Made by a program: the position numbers and the translations under genes
The notes under the pieces: model-generated
What the model was told of the DNA's origin: nothing
Databases searched by the model: none
What the model saw: only the letters and a program-made list of their open reading frames with translations
Shown here: in pieces, positions 19,791 through 60,194 of the stretch
Layout of the letters: every line of letters starts with the position of its first letter
Numbering within the stretch: the stretch's first letter is position 1
From: Amphibalanus amphitrite
Lineage: Eukaryota > Arthropoda > Thecostraca > Balanomorpha > Balanidae
Length of the DNA stretch: 64,000 nucleotides
Reading direction: 5' to 3'
NCBI RefSeq assembly: GCF_019059575.1
Contig: NW_024881627.1
Coordinates: 558,001 to 622,000, forward strand

Positions 19791-20015
19791 CCTGGTGAGA
19801 TCTGGATACAGGATCCGATACCGTACCGTACCTTTTGAAGTTTTTCCTGCTTTAGGTTTATTTTGATTTCGGTGAAACTATCACGGTACCTACGGAGTGG
19901 TGAGGGGGGCGATAGATGTCAACGTGCTACTTTTGAACTGTTTTTCTACGAGGATACGTCGATTGGAACCTCTCAAGATCTCTTTGTGGACTGTTACTCC
20001 CATCTCACGTTCAAC

Positions 20016-23000
20016 ATGCACCGTGACATCGCCCGTCTCCTGGTTCTGCTCGCCGTAGTGCGGGTACTGACCGTTGTGGCCTGCCCGGCACCAGCGCCGC
20101 CATCCAGGTCTACACTTCGAGTGACGGATCACCAGCTCAGGCACCATCTCACCAAAAGAAAACCTGCTTTCCCACGGAACTTTTCTCGGTTTTCATCGAG
20201 CTCTACTAGTGATTTGGCCCCAGCTCTAGCCACCCAACGGCTGCCGGCATTCAAATCTTCCCGAGCCCCAGGGACGACGGACCGCGCTCCCGCGCCGCGC
20301 GCAGAGCCCCACGGACGCCAGCCGGCGGCCGTGTCGCCTCACCCTCCCCTCCAGTTGAGAGCCCCGCCGGCCCGCGAGGGTGGGGAGCGGCCGCTCGCGC
20401 TGCCCGCGTCCCACGGCGCGCCGCCGGCAGCCCAGGCCCCGCCCACCAGCGTCTCCCCGCGCCCCAAGCCTGCCCGCAGCGGCGGACGCCGTCCACAACG
20501 CCGCGGCGCCCGCGGTGGCCGCGGCAGGGGCAGGAGCCGACCGGAAACGACAGAAAACCACCATCGGAATCTTCGTATCGGAAGCTTGAATATTCAAAGC
20601 CTTAAGCCTAAACTATTGGACCTGACCTATGAACTCCGCCAAAACAATTACGATGTCGTACTACTGTCGGAGACCTGGCTACGCCCTTCTACGCCAAACA
20701 GACTTTTAGTGCTCCCAGGCTACTCCCTCAGCCGCACAGACCGACCTGATGGCCGCGGGTACGGCGGCGTCGCAATCGCAACAAAATCGGATATCACATC
20801 AGTGCCCATCAAGTTCCCAAGTTTTGAGCGCGGCTGCAGCCAGCTCGAGTCAAAGTGGGCGCTGCTCAAGCTCGACAAAGGTCGTCAACTCATCGTATGT
20901 TCTTTATATCGCCCCCCTCACCACTCCGAAACCGCTTTATGTGCCGATTTCGCCGACCTTGAAAATCAGCTACAAAGAGTACTTATCGATCACCCTAGGA
21001 CCCCGCTCGTCATCTGCGGTGATATAAACTGTGACCTGCTGAAGAAAGAACCCAACTTTCGTGCACGACAACATCTCAGCAGCTTCCTATCGGACTACTC
21101 CCTAGACCAGCTAGTAACAACTTCGACTTTCACTTCCGGTTCGCTCCTAGACGTGTGTATGGTGAACAAGGTGGACCTCTTCTCTAACACCCGCGTTGAG
21201 TTTTGTCATTTTAGTCCGCATAAATTTATTAGCGTAGATGTCAACGTCCCCAAACTGCGTCCGAAGCCTACAATCATCTCAGCTCGTTCGCTCAACCGTG
21301 TTGATGTCACTGCCCTTAATTCTGATCTGGAGCTTGTCGACTGGGAGCCTGTGTTTACCGCCGCGACTGTTAGTGATCAGTGGGATGCATTCGTGTCCAA
21401 TTTTTTGCCTATTATCGACGACCACGCACCACTCAAGCGCATTACCATTCGGAACCCCACAGCGCCCCCGGCCTCTGCTGCCACACGGAACCTTATGTCC
21501 CAGCGCCGCGCCTCGCTACGACTGTCTGGTCGTCAGTCGACAGCTTACAAGGAGCTGAATCGCTCTGTTCGGGCCGCGCTGCGCCGCGACCGGCGAGAGG
21601 AGTTACAGAGAAATATCTGCGAGCGGGGTCCCAATAAGGTCTGGCAGTCTATCAGGACAGTTGTAGCAGGGAAAAAGGACGGTCCTAGTGTGCAGCCTAA
21701 TTTACCCGCCGATGAACTGAATTCATTTTTCGTCTCTGTCGGACCTCGCATCGCTGCGGAGGTCCGGTCTCTCAACACCGCTACCGATCTGAACGTTCGC
21801 CTCCCCCGGGTCGGTGCATGTCGTTTTCAGCTCCGCGCGGTCACTCTCGGCGAACTCGGTCACACTATCTTCGGCATGCGCAACTCAGGCGCCAGTGGGA
21901 CTGATGGCATTTGCATCCGAATGTTAAAGTCCGGCTTCTCAGCTATCGGTCGCGTCATACTTTACATTATCAATACGTGTATTACCAACTCCGATATCCC
22001 CGATTCCTGGAAACATTCCACAGTCCACCCCATTTTCAAATCTGGCAGCCCCTCGGATCCCACCAACTTTCGACCAATCTCATTAGTCCCCGTGATTATG
22101 AAGGTTGTGGAACGCCTTGTACATCAACAGCTTTACCACTACCTCTCAAATAACTATCTCCTTGCCTCCTCGCAGCATGGTTTTCGCCCCCGACACTCCA
22201 CAGAGACCGCTCTGCTGTCCGTCACAGACCAAATCCTCGCAGCCTCTGATAGGGGAGAACTTTCACTGTTGTGTCTCCTTGACTTAAGCAAATGCTTTGA
22301 TGTCATCGACCACGAACTTTTAATTCAAAAACTGGCTATGCACGGGATCGAGACCTCTTGGTTTTCTGCTTTTCTCACGGGACACACCCAGAGCGTGTCC
22401 CTATCTAATGGCGCCGGAGGTAGAGTACTGTCGCGGCCGCTTCCAAATAATATGGGCGTCTTCCAAGGATCTGCCCTGGGACCGTTACTCTTCACCATAT
22501 TTTCGAACAACCTCTCGCTATACGCAGGTGACGCCACCGTTTTCCAATATGCGGACGACACCCAGGTTCTAGTGAGCGGCCGTGCCGACGACCTCAGATC
22601 GCTTATCTCTCGCATGGAAGCTTCACTCGCATCAATCAGTGACTGGTTCTGTCTTCACGCTCTCAAGCTAAACGCAAACAAAACACAACTCATGGTTTTT
22701 GGCAGCAGACAAAATTTACGGAAAGTACCCGACTTCAGCGTCTCTCTTCGTGACTCTGTGTTGCAGCCATGCGAGCAGGTGGGGAATCTGGGTGTTGTCT
22801 TTGACAGCGCCCTGTCCTGGGAAGCACATGTGTCCGAGCTTAGTCGTCGGTGTACTGGCTTGTTGATCGGACTGTCTCACGCACGAAATTGTCTCCCTGA
22901 CGGCGTCATTAAAGTTCTCGTTACATCTCTGGTCATATCACGAATCAACTACTGCCTCACTGTGTACGGTAACGGGACTCAGAAAAATTTTGACCGACTC

Positions 23001-23393
23001 CAGAAAATTTTGAACTTTGCCGCTAGAGTGATCTTCGGACGGCGTAAGTTTGACCACGTCTCGGACCTGCACGACAGACTTGGCTGGCTATCACCAAAAT
23101 CCATGTCAGATTACCTGACACTCACGATCGCGCAAAAGGTCATTAAGCATGAAGAGCCCGAGAACCTCGCTGCACTGTTCGTCCCAAATCAAAATTTTCG
23201 AGACCGGCACACACGGCAGGATCATCTCCTTCATCTTCCCCGACCGAGGCTTGAAACCGGAAAACGGCGTTTTGAGTACCGCGCCGCGGCGCTGTTAAAT
23301 AGCCTCCCACCCCAGGTAGTGCAGCTGCCACCTGCCAGCTTCGCCCGGTCTGCCAGGGCCGCGCTGATTGACAAATCCCCGCTGCGCCGCTGA
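20016..23393 (+). CDS. LINE ORF2-like polyprotein: endonuclease + reverse transcriptase (1125 aa)
   Basis: This protein would nick genomic DNA and copy the element RNA by target-primed reverse transcription. The frame is open from about 19863, but 20016 is its first ATG. Residues 1-22 include a hydrophobic run (LLVLLAVVRVLTVVA). Residues 25-180 are Pro/Ala-rich and end in an Arg/Gly-rich patch (RRGARGGRGRGRSR) likely to bind nucleic acid. An APE-type endonuclease spans about 185-410: LNIQ, LLSETWL, GDIN and LLDVCMVN are present, but the usual SDH motif reads SPH. The reverse transcriptase spans about 655-905, with FRPISL, LLDLSKCFD, QGSALGPLLF and the catalytic YADD near 844. The C-terminal 200 residues (RLQKILNFAARVIFG, WLSPKSM) are typical of CR1/L2 proteins. 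No separate ORF1 was found upstream. Confidence 0.92.
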   Translation: MHRDIARLLVLLAVVRVLTVVACPAPAPPSRSTLRVTDHQLRHHLTKRKPAFPRNFSRFSSSSTSDLAPALATQRLPAFKSSRAPGTTDRAPAPRAEPHGRQPAAVSPHPPLQLRAPPAREGGERPLALPASHGAPPAAQAPPTSVSPRPKPARSGGRRPQRRGARGGRGRGRSRPETTENHHRNLRIGSLNIQSLKPKLLDLTYELRQNNYDVVLLSETWLRPSTPNRLLVLPGYSLSRTDRPDGRGYGGVAIATKSDITSVPIKFPSFERGCSQLESKWALLKLDKGRQLIVCSLYRPPHHSETALCADFADLENQLQRVLIDHPRTPLVICGDINCDLLKKEPNFRARQHLSSFLSDYSLDQLVTTSTFTSGSLLDVCMVNKVDLFSNTRVEFCHFSPHKFISVDVNVPKLRPKPTIISARSLNRVDVTALNSDLELVDWEPVFTAATVSDQWDAFVSNFLPIIDDHAPLKRITIRNPTAPPASAATRNLMSQRRASLRLSGRQSTAYKELNRSVRAALRRDRREELQRNICERGPNKVWQSIRTVVAGKKDGPSVQPNLPADELNSFFVSVGPRIAAEVRSLNTATDLNVRLPRVGACRFQLRAVTLGELGHTIFGMRNSGASGTDGICIRMLKSGFSAIGRVILYIINTCITNSDIPDSWKHSTVHPIFKSGSPSDPTNFRPISLVPVIMKVVERLVHQQLYHYLSNNYLLASSQHGFRPRHSTETALLSVTDQILAASDRGELSLLCLLDLSKCFDVIDHELLIQKLAMHGIETSWFSAFLTGHTQSVSLSNGAGGRVLSRPLPNNMGVFQGSALGPLLFTIFSNNLSLYAGDATVFQYADDTQVLVSGRADDLRSLISRMEASLASISDWFCLHALKLNANKTQLMVFGSRQNLRKVPDFSVSLRDSVLQPCEQVGNLGVVFDSALSWEAHVSELSRRCTGLLIGLSHARNCLPDGVIKVLVTSLVISRINYCLTVYGNGTQKNFDRLQKILNFAARVIFGRRKFDHVSDLHDRLGWLSPKSMSDYLTLTIAQKVIKHEEPENLAALFVPNQNFRDRHTRQDHLLHLPRPRLETGKRRFEYRAAALLNSLPPQVVQLPPASFARSARAALIDKSPLRR

Positions 23394-26219: not shown

Positions 26220-27036
26220 TAAGCCACTTTAAGTTTTCAGTTCACTAGAAAGGTGTTGAAACCATCGAAGGATTCTAAGAGAAGCGCAATGAGATTATTG
26301 CTCTTGTCGTCAAAAGTAATCGCGAGTACGTTTTTTTTCTGGGCCCTTTTGCTATGGGACACGCCCGTTCACACAAAAACTTGAATCCAGTTATCCTGCA
26401 AAAAGTAGGTAGATTATCAAAATATGACACCAACTAACTGATAAAAGTTATGTTTAATATGCTAAGGGTGCTGGTGAACTAGTGTAGCAATATTTACAAC
26501 TTTTTTCATCTTCTATCGTATTAATTACCGAGGGGAGACGGCGGGTGACAACGATTCCCGCGATAGTTTGAAACAAAAAGTGAGTTTACTTTGGCATTGA
26601 AACCGCCTGAAACGACACTTAGGCCGGGGGGATCCAGGGCGTCGCAAGTCCATCTACGACACGTCGCAAGTTACGACACATATGCCGTCGCAAGTTGTGT
26701 CGTAGCGGAAAAGGAGGGATGTTGAGGAAAGAGGGGTTTGTCGGAGGATACGACAGAACGTAGCTGCGACGAGGCTTAAATACCCGCTTTACTCGAGAAT
26801 TTAAAAGGCTACAAGATCAGCTGATCCCGTAGTAAACGTCAGTAAGGTCGAAAACTCTATCACGCATAAAGGAACATTCGCCTTTCTGGTTTGCGAGCTT
26901 ATGAGACAGCAAGGTCAAGCATGTTCTCTGATTCTGAAGCTTTGTATTAACTGGGTGACTTGTGGTTGCTAACGCTCACGTGATTTGCCATAAAATTTGG
27001 GATCGATCACAGGAGGTTCGTGGCTATAGGGCATCT

Positions 27037-27246
27037 CCTTTTTAGGCTCAAGTTCGAATAAGTCAAGTTCAAATTCGAATAAGTCAAATTCATATTGGAA
27101 GATGCCAAATGCAAAATCGAATACCTCAAGCTCAAATTGAGATATGCCAACTTCAAATTGGAAGAAGTCAAACGTAATTTCGACTTCCTCAAGATCAAAT
27201 TCGAATACGCCAAATTCAAATTAGAATAAGACAAATTCAATTTCAT
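27037..27246 (-). repeat. Inverted repeat arm, left (about 210 bp)
   Basis: This stretch matches 28399-28602 in inverse orientation with scattered changes and about one 6-bp length difference. Each arm is itself built of 21-bp-like words (TTCAAATTCGAATAAGTC-like). As a result it reads as SNLNLTYSNLNL-type peptides, which I take as a by-product of the repeat. Confidence 0.85.
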
Positions 27247-27305
27247 CGCAGCTACCTACCGTAAATAAGTAGAATTCTTATGATGCTATTATCATTATCA
27301 TTACC

Positions 27306-27307
<2 letters not shown>

Positions 27308-27351
<44 letters not shown>

Positions 27352-27413
27352 GTTATTATTATTATTATTATTATTACTATTATTATTATTATTATTATCA
27401 TCATTATTATATT
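27308..27413. repeat. (ATT)n microsatellite
   Basis: Nearly pure ATT trinucleotide repeat of about 105 bases with a few interruptions, lying in the loop between the two inverted arms. Confidence 0.9.
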
Positions 27414-27583
27414 ATGCTATTATTCTTATGATTTGCTAATCGCCATCTACCTTCGATCGACTTTGGCTGTCGACTCCCATCTCGCCCCGGCTTGTTTCGA
27501 TAAAAGACTGTGCGTCATTAACTACATATCTCCGACAAATGTATATTGATAGAGACAAGTAGAAAAACACGGAACAAATAGTG

Positions 27584-27621
27584 CATGGACGCGTTTCGAT
27601 TACTAAATCTTCATCAGCATG
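27584..27621 (-). ncRNA. Hammerhead-ribozyme-like motif, left arm of palindrome
   Basis: On the minus strand: CATG, then CTGATGA (27611-27617), stem II GATT/AATC around a 4-nt loop, GAAA, a minimal stem III, GTC at 27588-27590, then CATG closing stem I. An extra A sits between CTGATGA and stem II. This is the compact type I arrangement seen in retroelements. Activity is untested. Confidence 0.55.
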
Positions 27622-27746
27622 ACATAATCACAGAGAAAACAAGATATAGCACACAAACATTCGAGCTCGTCACAGTGCAATCGACGATTGCACTGTGACG
27701 AGCTCGAATGTTTGTGTGCTATATCTTGTTTTCTCTGTGATTATGT

Positions 27747-27784
27747 CATGCTGATGAAGATTTAATAATCGAAACGCGTCCATG
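27747..27784 (+). ncRNA. Hammerhead-ribozyme-like motif, right arm of palindrome
   Basis: CATG (27747-27750), core CTGATGA (27751-27757), an extra A, stem II GATT-TAAT-AATC (27759-27770), GAAA (27771-27774), CGC, GTC (27778-27780) and closing CATG (27781-27784). The conserved core positions match the hammerhead consensus. Stem III is only one or two pairs, as in retroelement and satellite hammerheads that may need dimers to cleave. Confidence 0.58.
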
Positions 27785-28398
27785 CACTATTTGTTCCGTG
27801 TTTTTCTACATATCTCCGTTTTTTATTACGCACTTCGCAGCTCTGCCAGGGTGACGCGGTCTATGCTCGACACGAAACGGAAATCTGCCATTTGAAAACT
27901 TGTGCCCATAGTATGCAAAAATATCCCGCCATCATGAACTCATATTTACACAAAGCTGTCAGCCAGCGGCGATGTCAGACTGGGCAGTGGCGGGGAGAGC
28001 GAGCCGTGTAGCGGCCAACTGGTCACGTGTAGCGGAACTGTCTGACAGCTCAAGATCGCTGACATCCGTGACGGTGTCCAAGCCATCCATTGCTTCGAGT
28101 CAATTGTCATTATATGTATGCGTGCAATTACTTTTGCTCCAATTGTAAGGCTTATTTTTTTAATTTTAGACTGCATATGCTTTGCATTTACCCTGGACCT
28201 ATTTTACCGTATAAGTATGATACGTACATATTTCTCAACATTTTATTTTTCACGCGCTCGTAAAAAGAAAACAAACGCATTCGTCCATCATCAAAGTACT
28301 TGCATTGTGACTGAAAATGTCATGCATTCGGTGACGAAGAAATTATTTATAGTGATGAAGGATGGCAAATAAACAAACACTACTAACACAAGACGAAA

Positions 28399-28602
28399 TT
28401 GAAGTTGCCTTATTCTAATTTGAATTTGGCGTATTCGAATTTGATCTTGAGTAAGACGAAATTGCATTTGACTTCTTCCAATTTGATGTTGGCGTATCTC
28501 AATTTGAGCTTGAGGTATCCGATTTTGTATTTGACATCTTCCAATATGAAGTTGACTTATTCGAATTTGAACTTGACTTATTCGAACTTGAGCCTAAAAA
28601 GG
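28399..28602 (+). repeat. Inverted repeat arm, right
   Basis: This is the partner of 27037-27246. Together the two arms could form a stem of about 200 bp around a 1.15-kb loop. Confidence 0.85.
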
Positions 28603-28639
28603 TGTAGAATCGATGCTTTAGAAGAAATGAGTTCCGAGA

Positions 28640-28894
28640 GTTTGAGGTCAGAGAGAGGTAAGAAATTTGTAGATGGAGGTCACAATTGGAGGTTACAGAG
28701 GTCATCTGGGACACGTCAGGTCACAGAGGTCAACTTGGGGTCATCACAGAGCTCAATTGGAGACCACGGAGGTAATCTGAGACACGTCAGGTCACAGAGG
28801 GCAACTTGGGGGCACGCCAGGTCACAGAGGTCAACCTAGGGTCATCACAGAGCTCAATTGGAGGTCACGGAGGTCATCTGGGACACATCAAGTC
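28640..28894. repeat. AGGTCA-rich minisatellite, left part
   Basis: About three units of a 71-72-bp repeat, each with GGGACACGTCAGGTCACAG-type wording. Most units contain AGGTCACAGAGGTCA, a direct repeat of the nuclear-receptor half-site with 3-bp spacing. The array is split from its right part by the element at 28899-30425. Confidence 0.85.
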
Positions 28895-28898
28895 ACAG

Positions 28899-30425
28899 CA
28901 CGTTGCCCCAATAGACGGTAAATAACTTCTGAAAATACCTATCTCCAGTTTTAGTGTTTTCTGAACCAAAATTTTGCGAGGAATCCGATGGTGTGGCCCC
29001 CGAAACCTGAAAAATTTCCATTTTTGAGATAGCACCTATTTTTTGAAAAATAAATATTCGTCATGCATAATAGTCAAATAAATTGAAAATATAATGAGTT
29101 AATTTTTGTAACAACACTAGAATGTATCGAACATGAATAAGTGATATATTTTAGCTGAGATGATACCATATCTGCGCATACATGTACATGAATTAGTACA
29201 TTAACCCTCGACGGCCGAGAAGGGGTGGGGCGGGTGCCGCCTCATAGGGTTTTTCGCGATAGCTCAAAACACGCCGAGGCTAGACAGCTGAAACTTGGCA
29301 TACCTATTCTTTTATTCAAGCTGGATCTTTTGACACCAACCGCATTTTCAGGTCAGGTCAGGTCACTGACCTATAACGTCATAAATGAACTTCTGCACGG
29401 TCCTTAGATGTTGCAACTTTGCAACGCCCTCAGTGCCAGAGGAACTTTCACAGGAAGATGAAACTTACAGGACGTAGTATCCTCCAGAGGTCTCACAACT
29501 TGCATATCTCGGATTTTTCCCAAAGGTCACATGAGGTCAGTTCGGTCACGTGACCTCACCATTGTAAGTCAATGGGGGAAATATGAAAACTGTTATTTTG
29601 GCGCCGGAAATGATCTTAAACTGTCCCAAGCACATGGAATCGTGGTTTCACGCACTTCTTGCAAGGTTCGATCATGAAACCACGATTCCATGTGCTTGGG
29701 ATAGTTTTAGATCATTTCTGGCGCCAAAATAACAGCTTTCATATTTCCCCCATTGACTTATAATGGTGAGGTCACGTGACCGACCTGACCACATGTGACA
29801 CTTAGGTAAAATCCGAGATATACAAGTTATGAGGCCTCTGAAGGATACTACGTCCTGTAAGTTTCATCTTCCTGTAAAAGTTCCTCTGGCACTGAGGGCG
29901 TTGCAAAGTTGCAACATCTGAGGCCCTTGCAGAGGTTCATTTATGACGTCATAGTTCAGTGACCTGACCTGACCTGAAAATGCGGTTGGTGTCAAAAGAT
30001 CCAGCTTGAATAAAAGAATAGGTATGCCAAGTTTCAGCTGTCTAGCCTCGGCGTATTTTGAGCTATCGCGAAAAACCCTATGAGGCGGCACCCGCCCCAC
30101 CCCTTCTCGGCCGTCGAGGGTTAATGTACTAATTCATGTACATGTATGCGCAGATATGGTATCATCTCAGCTAAAATATATCACTTATTCATGTTCGATG
30201 CATTCTAGTGTTGTTAAAAAATTAACTCATTATATTTTCAATTTATTTGTCTATTATGCATGACGAATATTTATTTTTCAAAAAATAGGTGCTATCTCAA
30301 AAATGGAAATTTTTCAGGTTTCGGGGACCACACCATCGGATTCCTCGCAAAATTTTGGTTCAGAAAACACTAAAACTGGAGATAGGTATTTTCAAAAGTT
30401 ATTTACCGTCTTCTGGGGCAATGTG
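28899..30425. mobile_element. 1.5-kb foldback (palindromic) element inserted in the minisatellite
   Basis: Two arms of about 750 bp (28899-29650 and 29675-30425) are inverted copies around a 24-nt spacer. The ends read CACGTTGCCCC and, reversed, CACATTGCCCC. The flanks are ACAG on both sides (28895-28898, 30426-30429), and removing the insert restores the minisatellite wording GTCACAGAGGTCAAC. CAC ends with a 4-bp duplication resemble the CMC (Chapaev/CACTA) group. Mirror-image open frames in the arms encode similar peptides but look like by-products. No transposase is present. Confidence 0.8.
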
Positions 30426-30429
30426 ACAG

Positions 30430-31190
30430 AGGTCAACTTGGGGTCATCACAGAGCTCAATTGAAGGTCATTGGGGCCATCTGGGACACGTCAGGTCACAG
30501 AGGTCAGCTTGGTGCCATCAGAGAGGTCACTTAGAGGTCACAGAGGTCATATGGGACACGTCAGGTCATAGAGGTCAACTAAAGGTCATCAGAGAGCTCA
30601 ATTGGAGGTCATCTGGGACACGTCAGGTCACAGAGGTCAGCTTGGAGTCATTAGAGAGCTCAATTGGAGGTCAAGGAGGTCATCTGGGACACGTCAGGTA
30701 ACAGAGGTCAACTTGGGGTCCTCACAGAGCTCTATTGGAGGTCATGAGGGTCATCTGGGACACGTCAGGTCACAGAGGTTAGCTTGGGGTCATCATAGAG
30801 GTCACTTAGAGGTTACAGAGGTCATATGGGACACGCCAGGTCACAGAGGTCAAGTTGGGGTCATCACAGAGCTCAAATGGAGGTCATCTGGGACACGTCA
30901 GGTCACAGAGGTCAGCTTGGAGTCATCAGAGAGCTCAATTGGAGGTCACGGAGGTCATCTGAGACACGTCAGGTCACAAAGGTCATGTTGGGGTCATCAC
31001 ATAGCTCTATTGGAGGTCATGGGGGTCATCTGGGACACGTCAGATCACAGAGGTCAGCTTGGAGTCATCAGAGAGCTCAAAAGGATGTCACGGAGGTCAT
31101 CTGGGACAGGTCAGGTCAAAAAGGTCAACTTGGGGTCATCACAGAGCTCATTGGAGGTCATCGGGGTCAGCTGGGACACGTCGTTTTTGG
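30430..31190. repeat. AGGTCA-rich minisatellite, right part
   Basis: About ten further units of the 71-72-bp repeat. Units start near 30881, 30952 and 31023, giving a 71-bp period there. AGGTCA occurs roughly 35 times in this part, with DR3 pairs of the forms AGGTCAcagAGGTCA and AGGTCAcggAGGTCA. All forward frames stay open for long distances because the unit lacks stops. The long open frames are therefore not evidence of a protein. Confidence 0.85.
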
Positions 31191-31723
31191 AATTGGGAGA
31201 ATATTTTGGGGGATGCCCCTTGCAACGTCCAAGACCGCCTTTCTGGATTCGCCAGTAGTTGCTGGAATGGTGTTAGGCTACTTCATATCCCCGAATACCC
31301 CAATAAATGTGAATATAACATATTATGCACCATTTTCAACACTCTCGCTGGCACGGATTGAGGCCTCATAGACGACCCGTCAGTTCAAGCTCTATAACTC
31401 GCGTTAGCGTCAACGGATTGCAACCAAATTTTCAGGATCTAAAGTTTAAACAATTTTACACCTACCATGTGAATTTCGTGACCATGACCCGAATGACCTG
31501 TGACCTGTGACCTCTTCCTCAAGGCAAGGTCAACTTGCGACACAACTTACGACTGCTATTTCAAATTCGTAAGTTGTGTCGCAAATCAGGCTATTTGCGA
31601 TAGACTTTACTACTTAAGTAACGCTACTCATCGATTGATCCCTTCAAAAACGACTTACTACACAACTTGCGACACGTCGCAGCTGCGACGAGGCTTACGA
31701 CTCTCTGGATCCCCCCAGCCTTA

Positions 31724-59414: not shown

Positions 59415-60194
59415 CTTACCCCTTACCCCTTAATCGGCCCTTAAAGGAAGGGGCGCGTCAAAAATGCCTCAAGGGTTCGTCTGATCGCCAAAATAAGGGT
59501 CGCAATCGATTCCTCGGGTCAATATCTAGCCGCAGCCTTGGGTTCCAGATGTGTGCAACTTACCCCTTACCCCTTAATCGGCCCTTAAAGGAAGGGGCGC
59601 GTCAAAAGTGCCTCAAGGGTTCGTCTGATCGCCAAAATATGGGTCGCAATCGATTCCTCGGATCAATATCTAGCCGCAGCCTCGAGTTCCAGGACCAGAT
59701 GTGTGCAGCTTACCCCTTACCCCTTAATCGGCCCTTAAAGGAAGGGGCGCGTCAAAAGTGCCTCAAGGGTTCGTCTGATCGCCAAAACAAGGGTCGCAAT
59801 CGATTCCTCGGGTCAATATCTAGCCGCAGCCTCGGGTTCCAGATGTGTGCAACTTACCCCTTACCCCTTAATCGGCCCTTAAAGGAAGGGGCGCGTCAAA
59901 AGTGCCTCAAGGGTTCGTCTGATCGCTAAAATAAGGGTCGCAATCGATTCCTCGGGTCAATATCTAGCCGCAGCCTCGGGTTCCAGATGTGTGCAACTTA
60001 CCCCTTACCCCTTAATCGGCCCTTAAAGGAAAGGGCGCGTCAAAAGTGCCTCAAGGGTTCGTCTGATCGCCAAAATAAGGGCCGCAAACGATTCCTCGAG
60101 TCAATATATAGCCGCAGTCTCGGGTTCCAGATGTGTGCAACTTACCCCTTACCCCTTAATCGGCCCTTAGGAAGGGGCGCGTCAAAAGTGTCTG
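59415..60194 (+). repeat. 144-bp tandem repeat, about 5.4 copies in six starts
   Basis: Units begin CTTACCCCTTACCCCTTAAT at 59415, 59559, 59709, 59853, 59997 and 60141. The spacing is 144 except one of 150, and the last unit lacks 3 bases. All length changes are multiples of three. One plus frame is open from 59396 to 59926 and again to 60211, interrupted by one TAA at 59927-59929 (CGCCAA to CGCTAA). It encodes a 48-residue repeat (CATYPLPLNRPLKEGARQKC, then LKGSSDRQNKGRNRFLGSIS, then SRSLGFQM). Coding is not established. Confidence 0.9.

What the first reader, a model, noticed from the sequence alone, without database searches (positions are those of the whole stretch)
28640..31545. Mobile-element array with about 60 nuclear-receptor half-sites, many as DR3
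AGGTCA or its complement occurs about 60 times by eye in 2.9 kb, against one or two expected by chance. The minisatellite repeatedly gives AGGTCAcagAGGTCA and AGGTCAcggAGGTCA (DR3). The foldback element adds AGGTCAcatgAGGTCA (DR4). Near 31494-31512 there are three complement copies with 1-bp spacing (triple DR1). Receptors pairing with RXR/USP bind such direct repeats; in arthropods EcR/USP and related receptors are candidates. The array lies 3-6 kb downstream of a Hes-type gene. It could be a transposable hormone-responsive enhancer, or a minisatellite that only resembles one.
Basis: partly seen in the sequence, partly recalled or inferred. Interest (0 to 1): 0.82.

Follow-up and report, generated by a model that had tools for sequence, protein, structure and literature searches.

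The report
Transposons with nucleosome-spaced receptor half-sites
The roughly 60 hormone-receptor-like half-sites here are real but sit in nested, mostly decaying transposons; the bigger surprise is that the same genome is full of short transposons that carry this half-site in clusters about 170 bases apart, the spacing of nucleosomes.

Summary
Observation confirmed: 61 AGGTCA in 28640-31545 (shuffles: mean 3.0, maximum 8 of 500), with 13 DR3. They lie in nested mobile DNA: element X (26622-31720, TTA duplication) with an internal minisatellite (46 of 61 sites), invaded by foldback B (28899-30425, ACAG duplication) whose core is a TTAA element (11 sites). A local hormone enhancer is not supported: minisatellite half-site columns are not clearly better conserved, foldback half-sites differ between arms as much as the rest, and DR3 is one unit copied.

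The signal is genome-wide. In 200 kb of the same genome AGGTCA is 5.7-fold over-represented; DR4 occurs 107,268 times against 266 for the reversed pattern. Many sites lie in noncoding TTAA-flanked elements (69,752 exact termini). Across subfamilies AGGTCA is kept more than neighbouring hexamers (0.82 against 0.51). Clusters recur every ~170 bp without similarity between blocks, and blocks show 10-bp A/T periodicity. I infer transposons laid out as phased nucleosome arrays with linker sites for a host factor, perhaps a nuclear receptor. Binding and nucleosomes are untested.

The parts
26622..31720 (.). Element X, non-autonomous, with terminal inverted repeat GGCYGGGGGGATCCAG.. (23 of 27 bases match) and TTA on both sides (26619-26621, 31721-31723); about 2.0 kb without the nested A and B; PIF/Harbinger-like by recall of TSD and TIR only
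   Evidence: Ends and TSD. Relatives without A and B: L029 and L042. At least 40 places match its right flank.
27037..28602 (.). Nested element A: inverted arms with 21/63-bp subterminal tandem repeats and an inner palindrome 27552-27816; no AGGTCA
   Evidence: absent at this point from L029.
28640..28898 (+). Minisatellite of X, left part, 10 AGGTCA
28899..30425 (.). Foldback B, 1.5-kb palindrome, arms 95% identical, termini CACRTTGCCCC, ACAG on both sides; Chapaev-like by recall of TSD and TIR only
29201..30124 (.). Core of B: TTAA element with termini TTAACCCTCGACGGCC, 11 AGGTCA/TGACCT, clusters about 160 and 340 bp from its left end; related to L022:3581-4615 (84%), L014 (78%), L013 (83%)
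29524..29539 (+). DR4 AGGTCAcatgAGGTCA; broken in the right arm, present in L014
30426..31182 (+). Minisatellite of X, right part: ~10.9 copies of a 71-bp unit, 36 AGGTCA, 10 of the 13 DR3
31394..31523 (-). Module in the right part of X shared with the end region of TTAA elements (75.6% to L020:4676-4798; also L001, L007, L015, L018)
31494..31513 (-). Triple DR1 (AGGTCAcAGGTCAcAGGTCA on the minus strand), intact in L042
24517..25380 (+). Hes-type frame upstream, context only

Best explanation
Anatomy (shown): the site is a stack of non-autonomous transposons. Source (shown): the genome carries tens of thousands of exact termini of short noncoding TTAA-flanked elements rich in AGGTCA; the foldback core and the triple-DR1 module are related to these. 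Mechanism (inferred): in the TTAA elements the AGGTCA clusters are binding sites for a host DNA-binding factor, most likely a nuclear receptor (exact AGGTCA; DR4 the favoured spacing outside overlapping runs), placed in the linkers of a ~170-bp nucleosome array that the element's own sequence helps to position. An open, phased array would help the element while it spreads, for instance by giving transposase access in cells where the receptor is active. Old copies, as in the window, then decay. Shown: enrichment, retention across subfamilies, 170-bp phasing, 10-bp A/T periodicity. Inferred: which protein binds, that nucleosomes are phased there, and what the element gains.
For: AGGTCA 480 against 84 expected in 20 x 10 kb. 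DR4 107,268 against 266, DR3 14,700 against 276, all spacers 0-12 533,592 against 4,529 for reversed patterns. TTAA termini 69,752 against 117; 174 of 480 sample sites in 11.3 of 200 kb of such elements. Third copy intact where two agree: AGGTCA 298/365, hexamers 6-30 bp away 850/1669, neutral simulation 0.40 and 0.39. Period 170 bp, peak 814 to trough 72 pairs, best of 300 jitters 2.15 against 10.6; repeated in 16 other loci. No similarity between blocks in 8 elements. 10-bp A/T periodicity of blocks, none of 200 random sets as high. TGACGTCA in the same phase. Receptors of HR3, FTZ-F1 and HR78 type present by eye.
Against: The commonest spacing is the overlap AGGTCAGGTCA (74 of 480 sites' neighbours), which two receptors cannot share. 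Other receptor half-sites are not enriched like AGGTCA: GGGTCA 1.7, AGTTCA 1.2, GGTTCA 0.7. Retention is weak in subfamily B (0.67 against 0.61) and single simulated sets scatter widely (difference mean 0.01, sd 0.22, maximum 0.43). Words such as AACATG showed as much contrast with flanks in the earlier test (AGGTCA 11th of 126). No clear oscillation centred on the block midpoint, and no A/T periodicity in subfamily D. EcR and RXR not identified. No binding or chromatin data.
Confidence: 0.42

Rival explanations
1. AGGTCA is the binding word of a transposon-encoded protein (transposase or accessory protein), as subterminal repeats are for En/Spm or Ac (recalled); nuclear receptors do not matter.
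For: Half-sites are retained between subfamilies and the first cluster lies at a fixed ~150-195 bp from the end in the elements listed.
Against: Clusters run through the middle of the elements. A related module with the triple DR1 lies in X, which has a TTA duplication. Four of 116 piggyBac transposase matches were looked at: none has a cluster inside, and three have ends TTAACCCATTA rather than CCCKCGCC. But the autonomous partner of the AGGTCA-rich elements was not found, so this stays open.
Confidence: 0.22
2. Neutral relic: the elements descend from an old AGGTC-rich satellite of ~170-bp units; the motif and its period are remains, without present function.
For: AGGTC runs also occur as a microsatellite (L024); minisatellite and foldback half-sites look neutral.
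Against: Blocks no longer resemble each other while AGGTCA is retained beyond simulation, in subfamilies whose members are only 64-86% alike.
Confidence: 0.2
3. A host architectural or silencing protein (CENP-B-like or zinc-finger) binds AGGTCA in linkers and packs the elements.
For: Spacing at nucleosome length; runs of overlapping sites suit multivalent packing.
Against: Elements would be expected to lose sites that silence them (inference); receptors are the known readers of AGGTCA (recalled).
Confidence: 0.1
4. One reading: the array is a hormone-responsive enhancer at this locus, for instance for the Hes-type gene.
For: 46 perfect half-sites with 13 DR3, 3.3 kb downstream of the gene.
Against: No extra conservation of half-sites in the array or in the foldback; the same array stands in other places, L029 and L042.
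Confidence: 0.06

Closest known systems
CERP2/CELE2 MITEs of Caenorhabditis, HIM-17-dependent germline promoters (PMC9757741; abstract and six passages seen)
   Same: Short non-autonomous elements, dispersed, with transcription-factor motifs and a 10-bp periodic A/T (there TT) bias tied to nucleosome positioning
   Different: Here the motif is AGGTCA in many clusters at ~170-bp steps, the elements have TTAA ends CCCKCGCC, and promoter activity is unknown
Alu-borne DR2 retinoic acid response elements of primates (PMC1785376; abstract and outline seen)
   Same: A repeat family spreads about 10^5 perfect direct repeats (108,582 DR2 in human by the abstract; 107,268 DR4 here)
   Different: Alu-DR2 arose largely by CpG deamination in one place of the repeat, by the abstract; here there are many sites per element, favoured spacing DR4, and retention between subfamilies
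piggyBac-type non-autonomous elements (recalled)
   Same: TTAA duplication, ends starting CCC, noncoding
   Different: AGGTCA/TGACGTCA layout; the cognate transposase was not found
Satellites phased with nucleosomes, such as alpha satellite with CENP-B boxes at ~171 bp (recalled)
   Same: Protein-binding word at nucleosome-length steps
   Different: Dispersed transposons, not tandem arrays; successive blocks share no sequence
Subterminal transposase-binding repeats of En/Spm and Ac (recalled)
   Same: Many copies of a short word inside a non-autonomous element
   Different: Here also in the middle of the element and at ~170-bp steps

Membership tests
Direct-repeat hormone response element (the window array) | Two AGGTCA-type half-sites with a 1-5 bp spacer | tested here: met
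   13 DR3, 3 DR4, 2 DR1, 2 DR5
Direct-repeat hormone response element (the window array) | Half-sites kept by selection | tested here: not met
   12-14 of 71 mask rotations do as well; foldback 4/40 against 37/724
Direct-repeat hormone response element (the window array) | Receptor binding and hormone response | not testable with these tools
   No ChIP, ATAC or expression data
piggyBac-type TTAA elements (the AGGTCA-rich family) | TTAA target duplication | tested here: met
   Insertion in L042 at a TTAA that is empty in the window and in L039; TTAA at both ends of the foldback core
piggyBac-type TTAA elements (the AGGTCA-rich family) | Mobilised by a piggyBac transposase with matching ends | tested here: inconclusive
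   116 DDE_Tnp_1_7 matches; of the 4 loci seen 3 have ends TTAACCCATTA, not CCCKCGCC
PIF/Harbinger (element X) | 3-bp TTA/TAA duplication and terminal inverted repeat | tested here: met
   TTA both sides, TIR 23 of 27; but no matching duplication at L042
PIF/Harbinger (element X) | Harbinger transposase | not tested
   X is noncoding here; no search made
Chapaev (foldback B) | 4-bp duplication, CAC termini | tested here: met
   ACAG both sides, CACRTTGCCCC ends; family features recalled
Chapaev (foldback B) | Chapaev transposase | not tested
   No search made
CERP2-like regulatory MITE (the AGGTCA-rich family) | Factor motif plus 10-bp A/T periodicity | tested here: met
   absent in one of five subfamilies
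CERP2-like regulatory MITE (the AGGTCA-rich family) | Bound by a host factor and active as promoter | not testable with these tools
   No chromatin or expression data

The most novel reading that the evidence does not exclude
A class of transposons that encode chromatin instead of protein: each copy specifies a phased array of about six or seven nucleosomes by A/T periodicity and puts clusters of nuclear-receptor half-sites, with CRE-like TGACGTCA, in the linkers, and this layout is kept under selection while the sequence between diverges. The family would have planted about 10^5 perfect DR4 sites in one genome, tying transposon activity, and potentially host genes, to hormone signalling.
Probability: 0.28. 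Interest if true: 0.88.

Novelty: new variant of a known kind. Interest (0 to 1): 0.68.

Why it matters
If the phased half-site clusters are bound, this is a natural experiment at the scale of Alu-DR2: a genome in which transposons have planted about a hundred thousand receptor-type sites, with signs that the transposons themselves keep them. It would make testable how non-autonomous elements recruit host factors and whether they carry their own nucleosome layout. For this locus it is a warning that dense perfect half-sites near a developmental gene are not by themselves evidence of an enhancer.

Tried and rejected
(1) First conservation tests with expectation identity^6 were biased: a neutral simulation kept 163 of 429 sites where that formula gives 78. 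Replaced by the three-copy test with its own simulation.

(2) A captured nuclear-receptor domain spread by a transposon: zf-C4 gave 77 exon matches, not an amplified family.

(3) Telomere idea, since (AGGTC)n equals (TCAGG)n: three TCAGGTCAGGTCAGG in the 200-kb sample, as many as TTAGGTTAGGTTAGG. Not pursued.

(4) Tandem duplication as a visible cause of the 170-bp period: no similarity between blocks in 8 elements.

(5) Literature: searches of one open-access library brought no paper describing this; most subscription journals are missing there. Nothing rests on it.

(6) Rfam and tRNA scans of the window found nothing; ten window frames gave Pfam matches only for the LINE and the Hes-type frame; two frames of the contig-end repeat gave none.

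(7) Not obtained: copy searches with the minisatellite, the foldback (20, 73) and L020:2345-3555 (89, 93) did not complete, so those copy numbers are unknown. DR1 was asked and not answered (138); DR0 and DR2 were not asked.

Full report
OBSERVATION. The region 28640-31545 holds 61 AGGTCA/TGACCT (53 and 8); 500 dinucleotide shuffles gave mean 3.0 and at most 8. DR3 occurs 13 times, DR4 three times (two of these span overlapping runs), DR1 twice as a triple, DR5 twice. The count is real, but it is not 61 events: 46 sites are in the minisatellite, 11 in a palindrome, 4 in the right flank. The 71-bp unit has four perfect half-sites; shuffles of the unit gave 0.38 on average and never more than three in 5000.

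ANATOMY. A second copy of the minisatellite element, L029 at G000:C2, matches both flanks at 90-92% and has 37 AGGTCA in 1301 bp. It lacks both inserts, so A (27037-28602) and B (28899-30425) were most likely inserted later; B has ACAG on both sides. A longer relative, L042, matches the window piecewise from 26634 to 31720; read by eye the element ends at 26622 and 31720, with an inverted repeat (23 of 27) and TTA on both sides. At L042 no matching 3-bp duplication is seen. The right flank has at least 40 matches in the assembly (247 candidates, 40 scored), a number of them at the same offsets from contig starts, which I read as a long repeat at assembly breaks; in L042 it abuts an 82-bp satellite.

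LOCAL CONSTRAINT. Half-site columns of the minisatellite are at 0.931 consensus against 0.886, matched by 12 of 71 rotations (right part alone 14 of 71). Foldback arms differ in 4 of 40 half-site columns and 37 of 724 others; the free-standing DR4 survives in one arm. The sites at this locus show no sign of being maintained as such.

GENOME-WIDE. The same genome (807,550,619 bases, 2644 contigs) was sampled at 20 x 10 kb. AGGTCA occurs 480 times against 84 expected, second of all hexamers by ratio behind AGAGAG; variants are lower: CGGTCA 1.7, GGGTCA 1.7, AGTTCA 1.2, AGGTCG 1.1, AGATCA 1.0, AGGTCC 0.7. It is clumped, 4 to 84 per 10 kb. Assembly counts against the reversed pattern: 533,592 / 4,529 for spacers 0-12; 107,268 / 266 for DR4 with a spacer not starting with G; 63,187 / 201 for DR5 likewise, of which many in the listing are AGGTCAAGGTCAGGTCA; 14,700 / 276 for all DR3. 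Receptor exons often come in equal-scoring pairs on two contigs, so both haplotypes may be present and counts up to doubled. In the sample the commonest adjacent spacing is the period-5 overlap (74); then DR4 32, DR0 17, DR1 13, DR5 9, DR2 3, DR3 2. Leaving out members of period-5 runs, DR4 leads with 22, DR0 has 10. The 28 DR4 with non-G spacers have 17 different spacers.

CARRIERS. Many sites lie in noncoding elements of 0.9-1.2 kb with ends TTAACCCKCGCC (longest open frames 81-127 codons in the four checked): 174 of 480 sites in 11.3 of 200 kb. The other 306 are in fragments, other repeats or alone. The exact terminus occurs 69,752 times against 117 reversed. The TTAA duplication is shown by an insertion in L042 absent from the window and from L039. 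Of 51 AGGTCA clusters in the loci then held, window included, 40 join one group by flank similarity with half-sites masked; the others are the minisatellite (2), one group of four and five singles, one of them an AGGTC-type microsatellite (L024). TGACGTCA is also enriched (86 against 5.7) and lies in the same phase as AGGTCA.

CONSERVATION. Early tests suggested a sharp six-base footprint; simulation showed part of it to be ascertainment, and in that analysis AGGTCA ranked only 11th of 126 words by contrast with flanks. The fairer test asks whether a third copy is intact where two are identical: AGGTCA 298 of 365, other hexamers 6-30 bp away 850 of 1669; by subfamily A 104/121, B 57/85, C 9/12, D 12/15, E 116/132, neighbours 0.41, 0.61, 0.49, 0.41, 0.48. 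Neutral simulation gave 0.40 and 0.39; its single sets scatter widely (difference mean 0.01, sd 0.22, maximum 0.43 in 26 sets), so one subfamily alone proves little and the weight rests on the five together. Triples share copies, 18 sequences in all, so cells are not independent. B shows little.

PHASING. Distances between AGGTCA sites, either orientation, peak near 165, 330, 505, 675 and 845 bp. The best period is 170 bp; pairs in peaks and troughs are 814 and 72, a ratio of 10.6, where jittering clusters by up to 85 bp gave at most 2.15 in 300 trials. Of 76 distances between neighbouring clusters under 1 kb, 51 lie in 135-205 bp. Sixteen loci outside the sample repeat it (204, 100, 87, 51 in peaks; 5, 10, 7, 5 in the stretches before them); eight of these were fetched because they hold DR3. 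AGGTCA ranks third of 317 words, after two AGAGAG words. In 8 elements, with half-sites and G/C runs masked, no block resembles another. Blocks between clusters show a 10-bp periodicity of AA/TT/TA/AT: 45 non-redundant of 100 blocks, score 0.057, random segments 0.006 with sd 0.011 and none of 200 as high; but no clear oscillation is seen around the block midpoint. By subfamily A, E, B, C, D the score is 0.109, 0.054, 0.054, 0.035, -0.002. The 45 blocks include diverged relatives and are not fully independent. That such periodicity and a ~170-bp repeat mark positioned nucleosomes is general knowledge (recalled); Carelli et al. report a 10-bp periodic TT bias in CERP2 and partly CELE2 elements, tied to nucleosome positioning (PMC9757741, passage seen).

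READING. Two things are kept apart: the window's array looks like a decaying by-product, while the family behind part of it shows a kept, phased layout. A host factor is preferred over a transposon protein because clusters run through the element's middle, a related module lies in X with another target duplication, and the 4 of 116 piggyBac transposase loci seen have no cluster inside. A nuclear receptor is the natural reader of AGGTCA (recalled) and receptors are present: of eight loci, six could be read by eye as HR3 (two), FTZ-F1 (three, two of them identical) and an HR78-like receptor; two were read on the wrong strand and not identified, and EcR and RXR were not looked for by name. Against a receptor stand the overlapping runs and the poor enrichment of other half-site variants. 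This is inference until binding is measured.

Noticed in passing
TTAA elements, e.g. L020:2345-3555 (182, 671, 1016 within it): TGACGTCA (CRE-like) is 15-fold enriched in the 200-kb sample and lies in the same ~170-bp phase as the AGGTCA clusters.
   Followed up: partly
window 27037-28602: Foldback-like element A with 21/63-bp subterminal tandem repeats in inverted arms and an inner 265-bp palindrome, without AGGTCA.
   Followed up: no
L042:575-10000 and contig starts listed: A near-identical long repeat at many contig starts, with the minisatellite and an 82-bp satellite; may be subtelomeric, pericentromeric or a large element.
   Followed up: partly
genome G000: 116 piggyBac DDE matches, some families with many copies of equal score, ends TTAACCCATTA in three of the four loci seen.
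   Followed up: partly
window 19839-23393: Open 1184-codon LINE frame with endonuclease and reverse transcriptase domains.
   Followed up: no
L024:2530-2730: TGACC-type microsatellite next to what looks like coding sequence; same repeat unit as (TCAGG)n.
   Followed up: no
window 59415-60190: Tandem array of a 144-bp unit, 5.4 copies, 94% matches.
   Followed up: no
L033, L034, L035: Two different FTZ-F1/NR5A-like DNA-binding domains by eye, perhaps duplicated genes.
   Followed up: no
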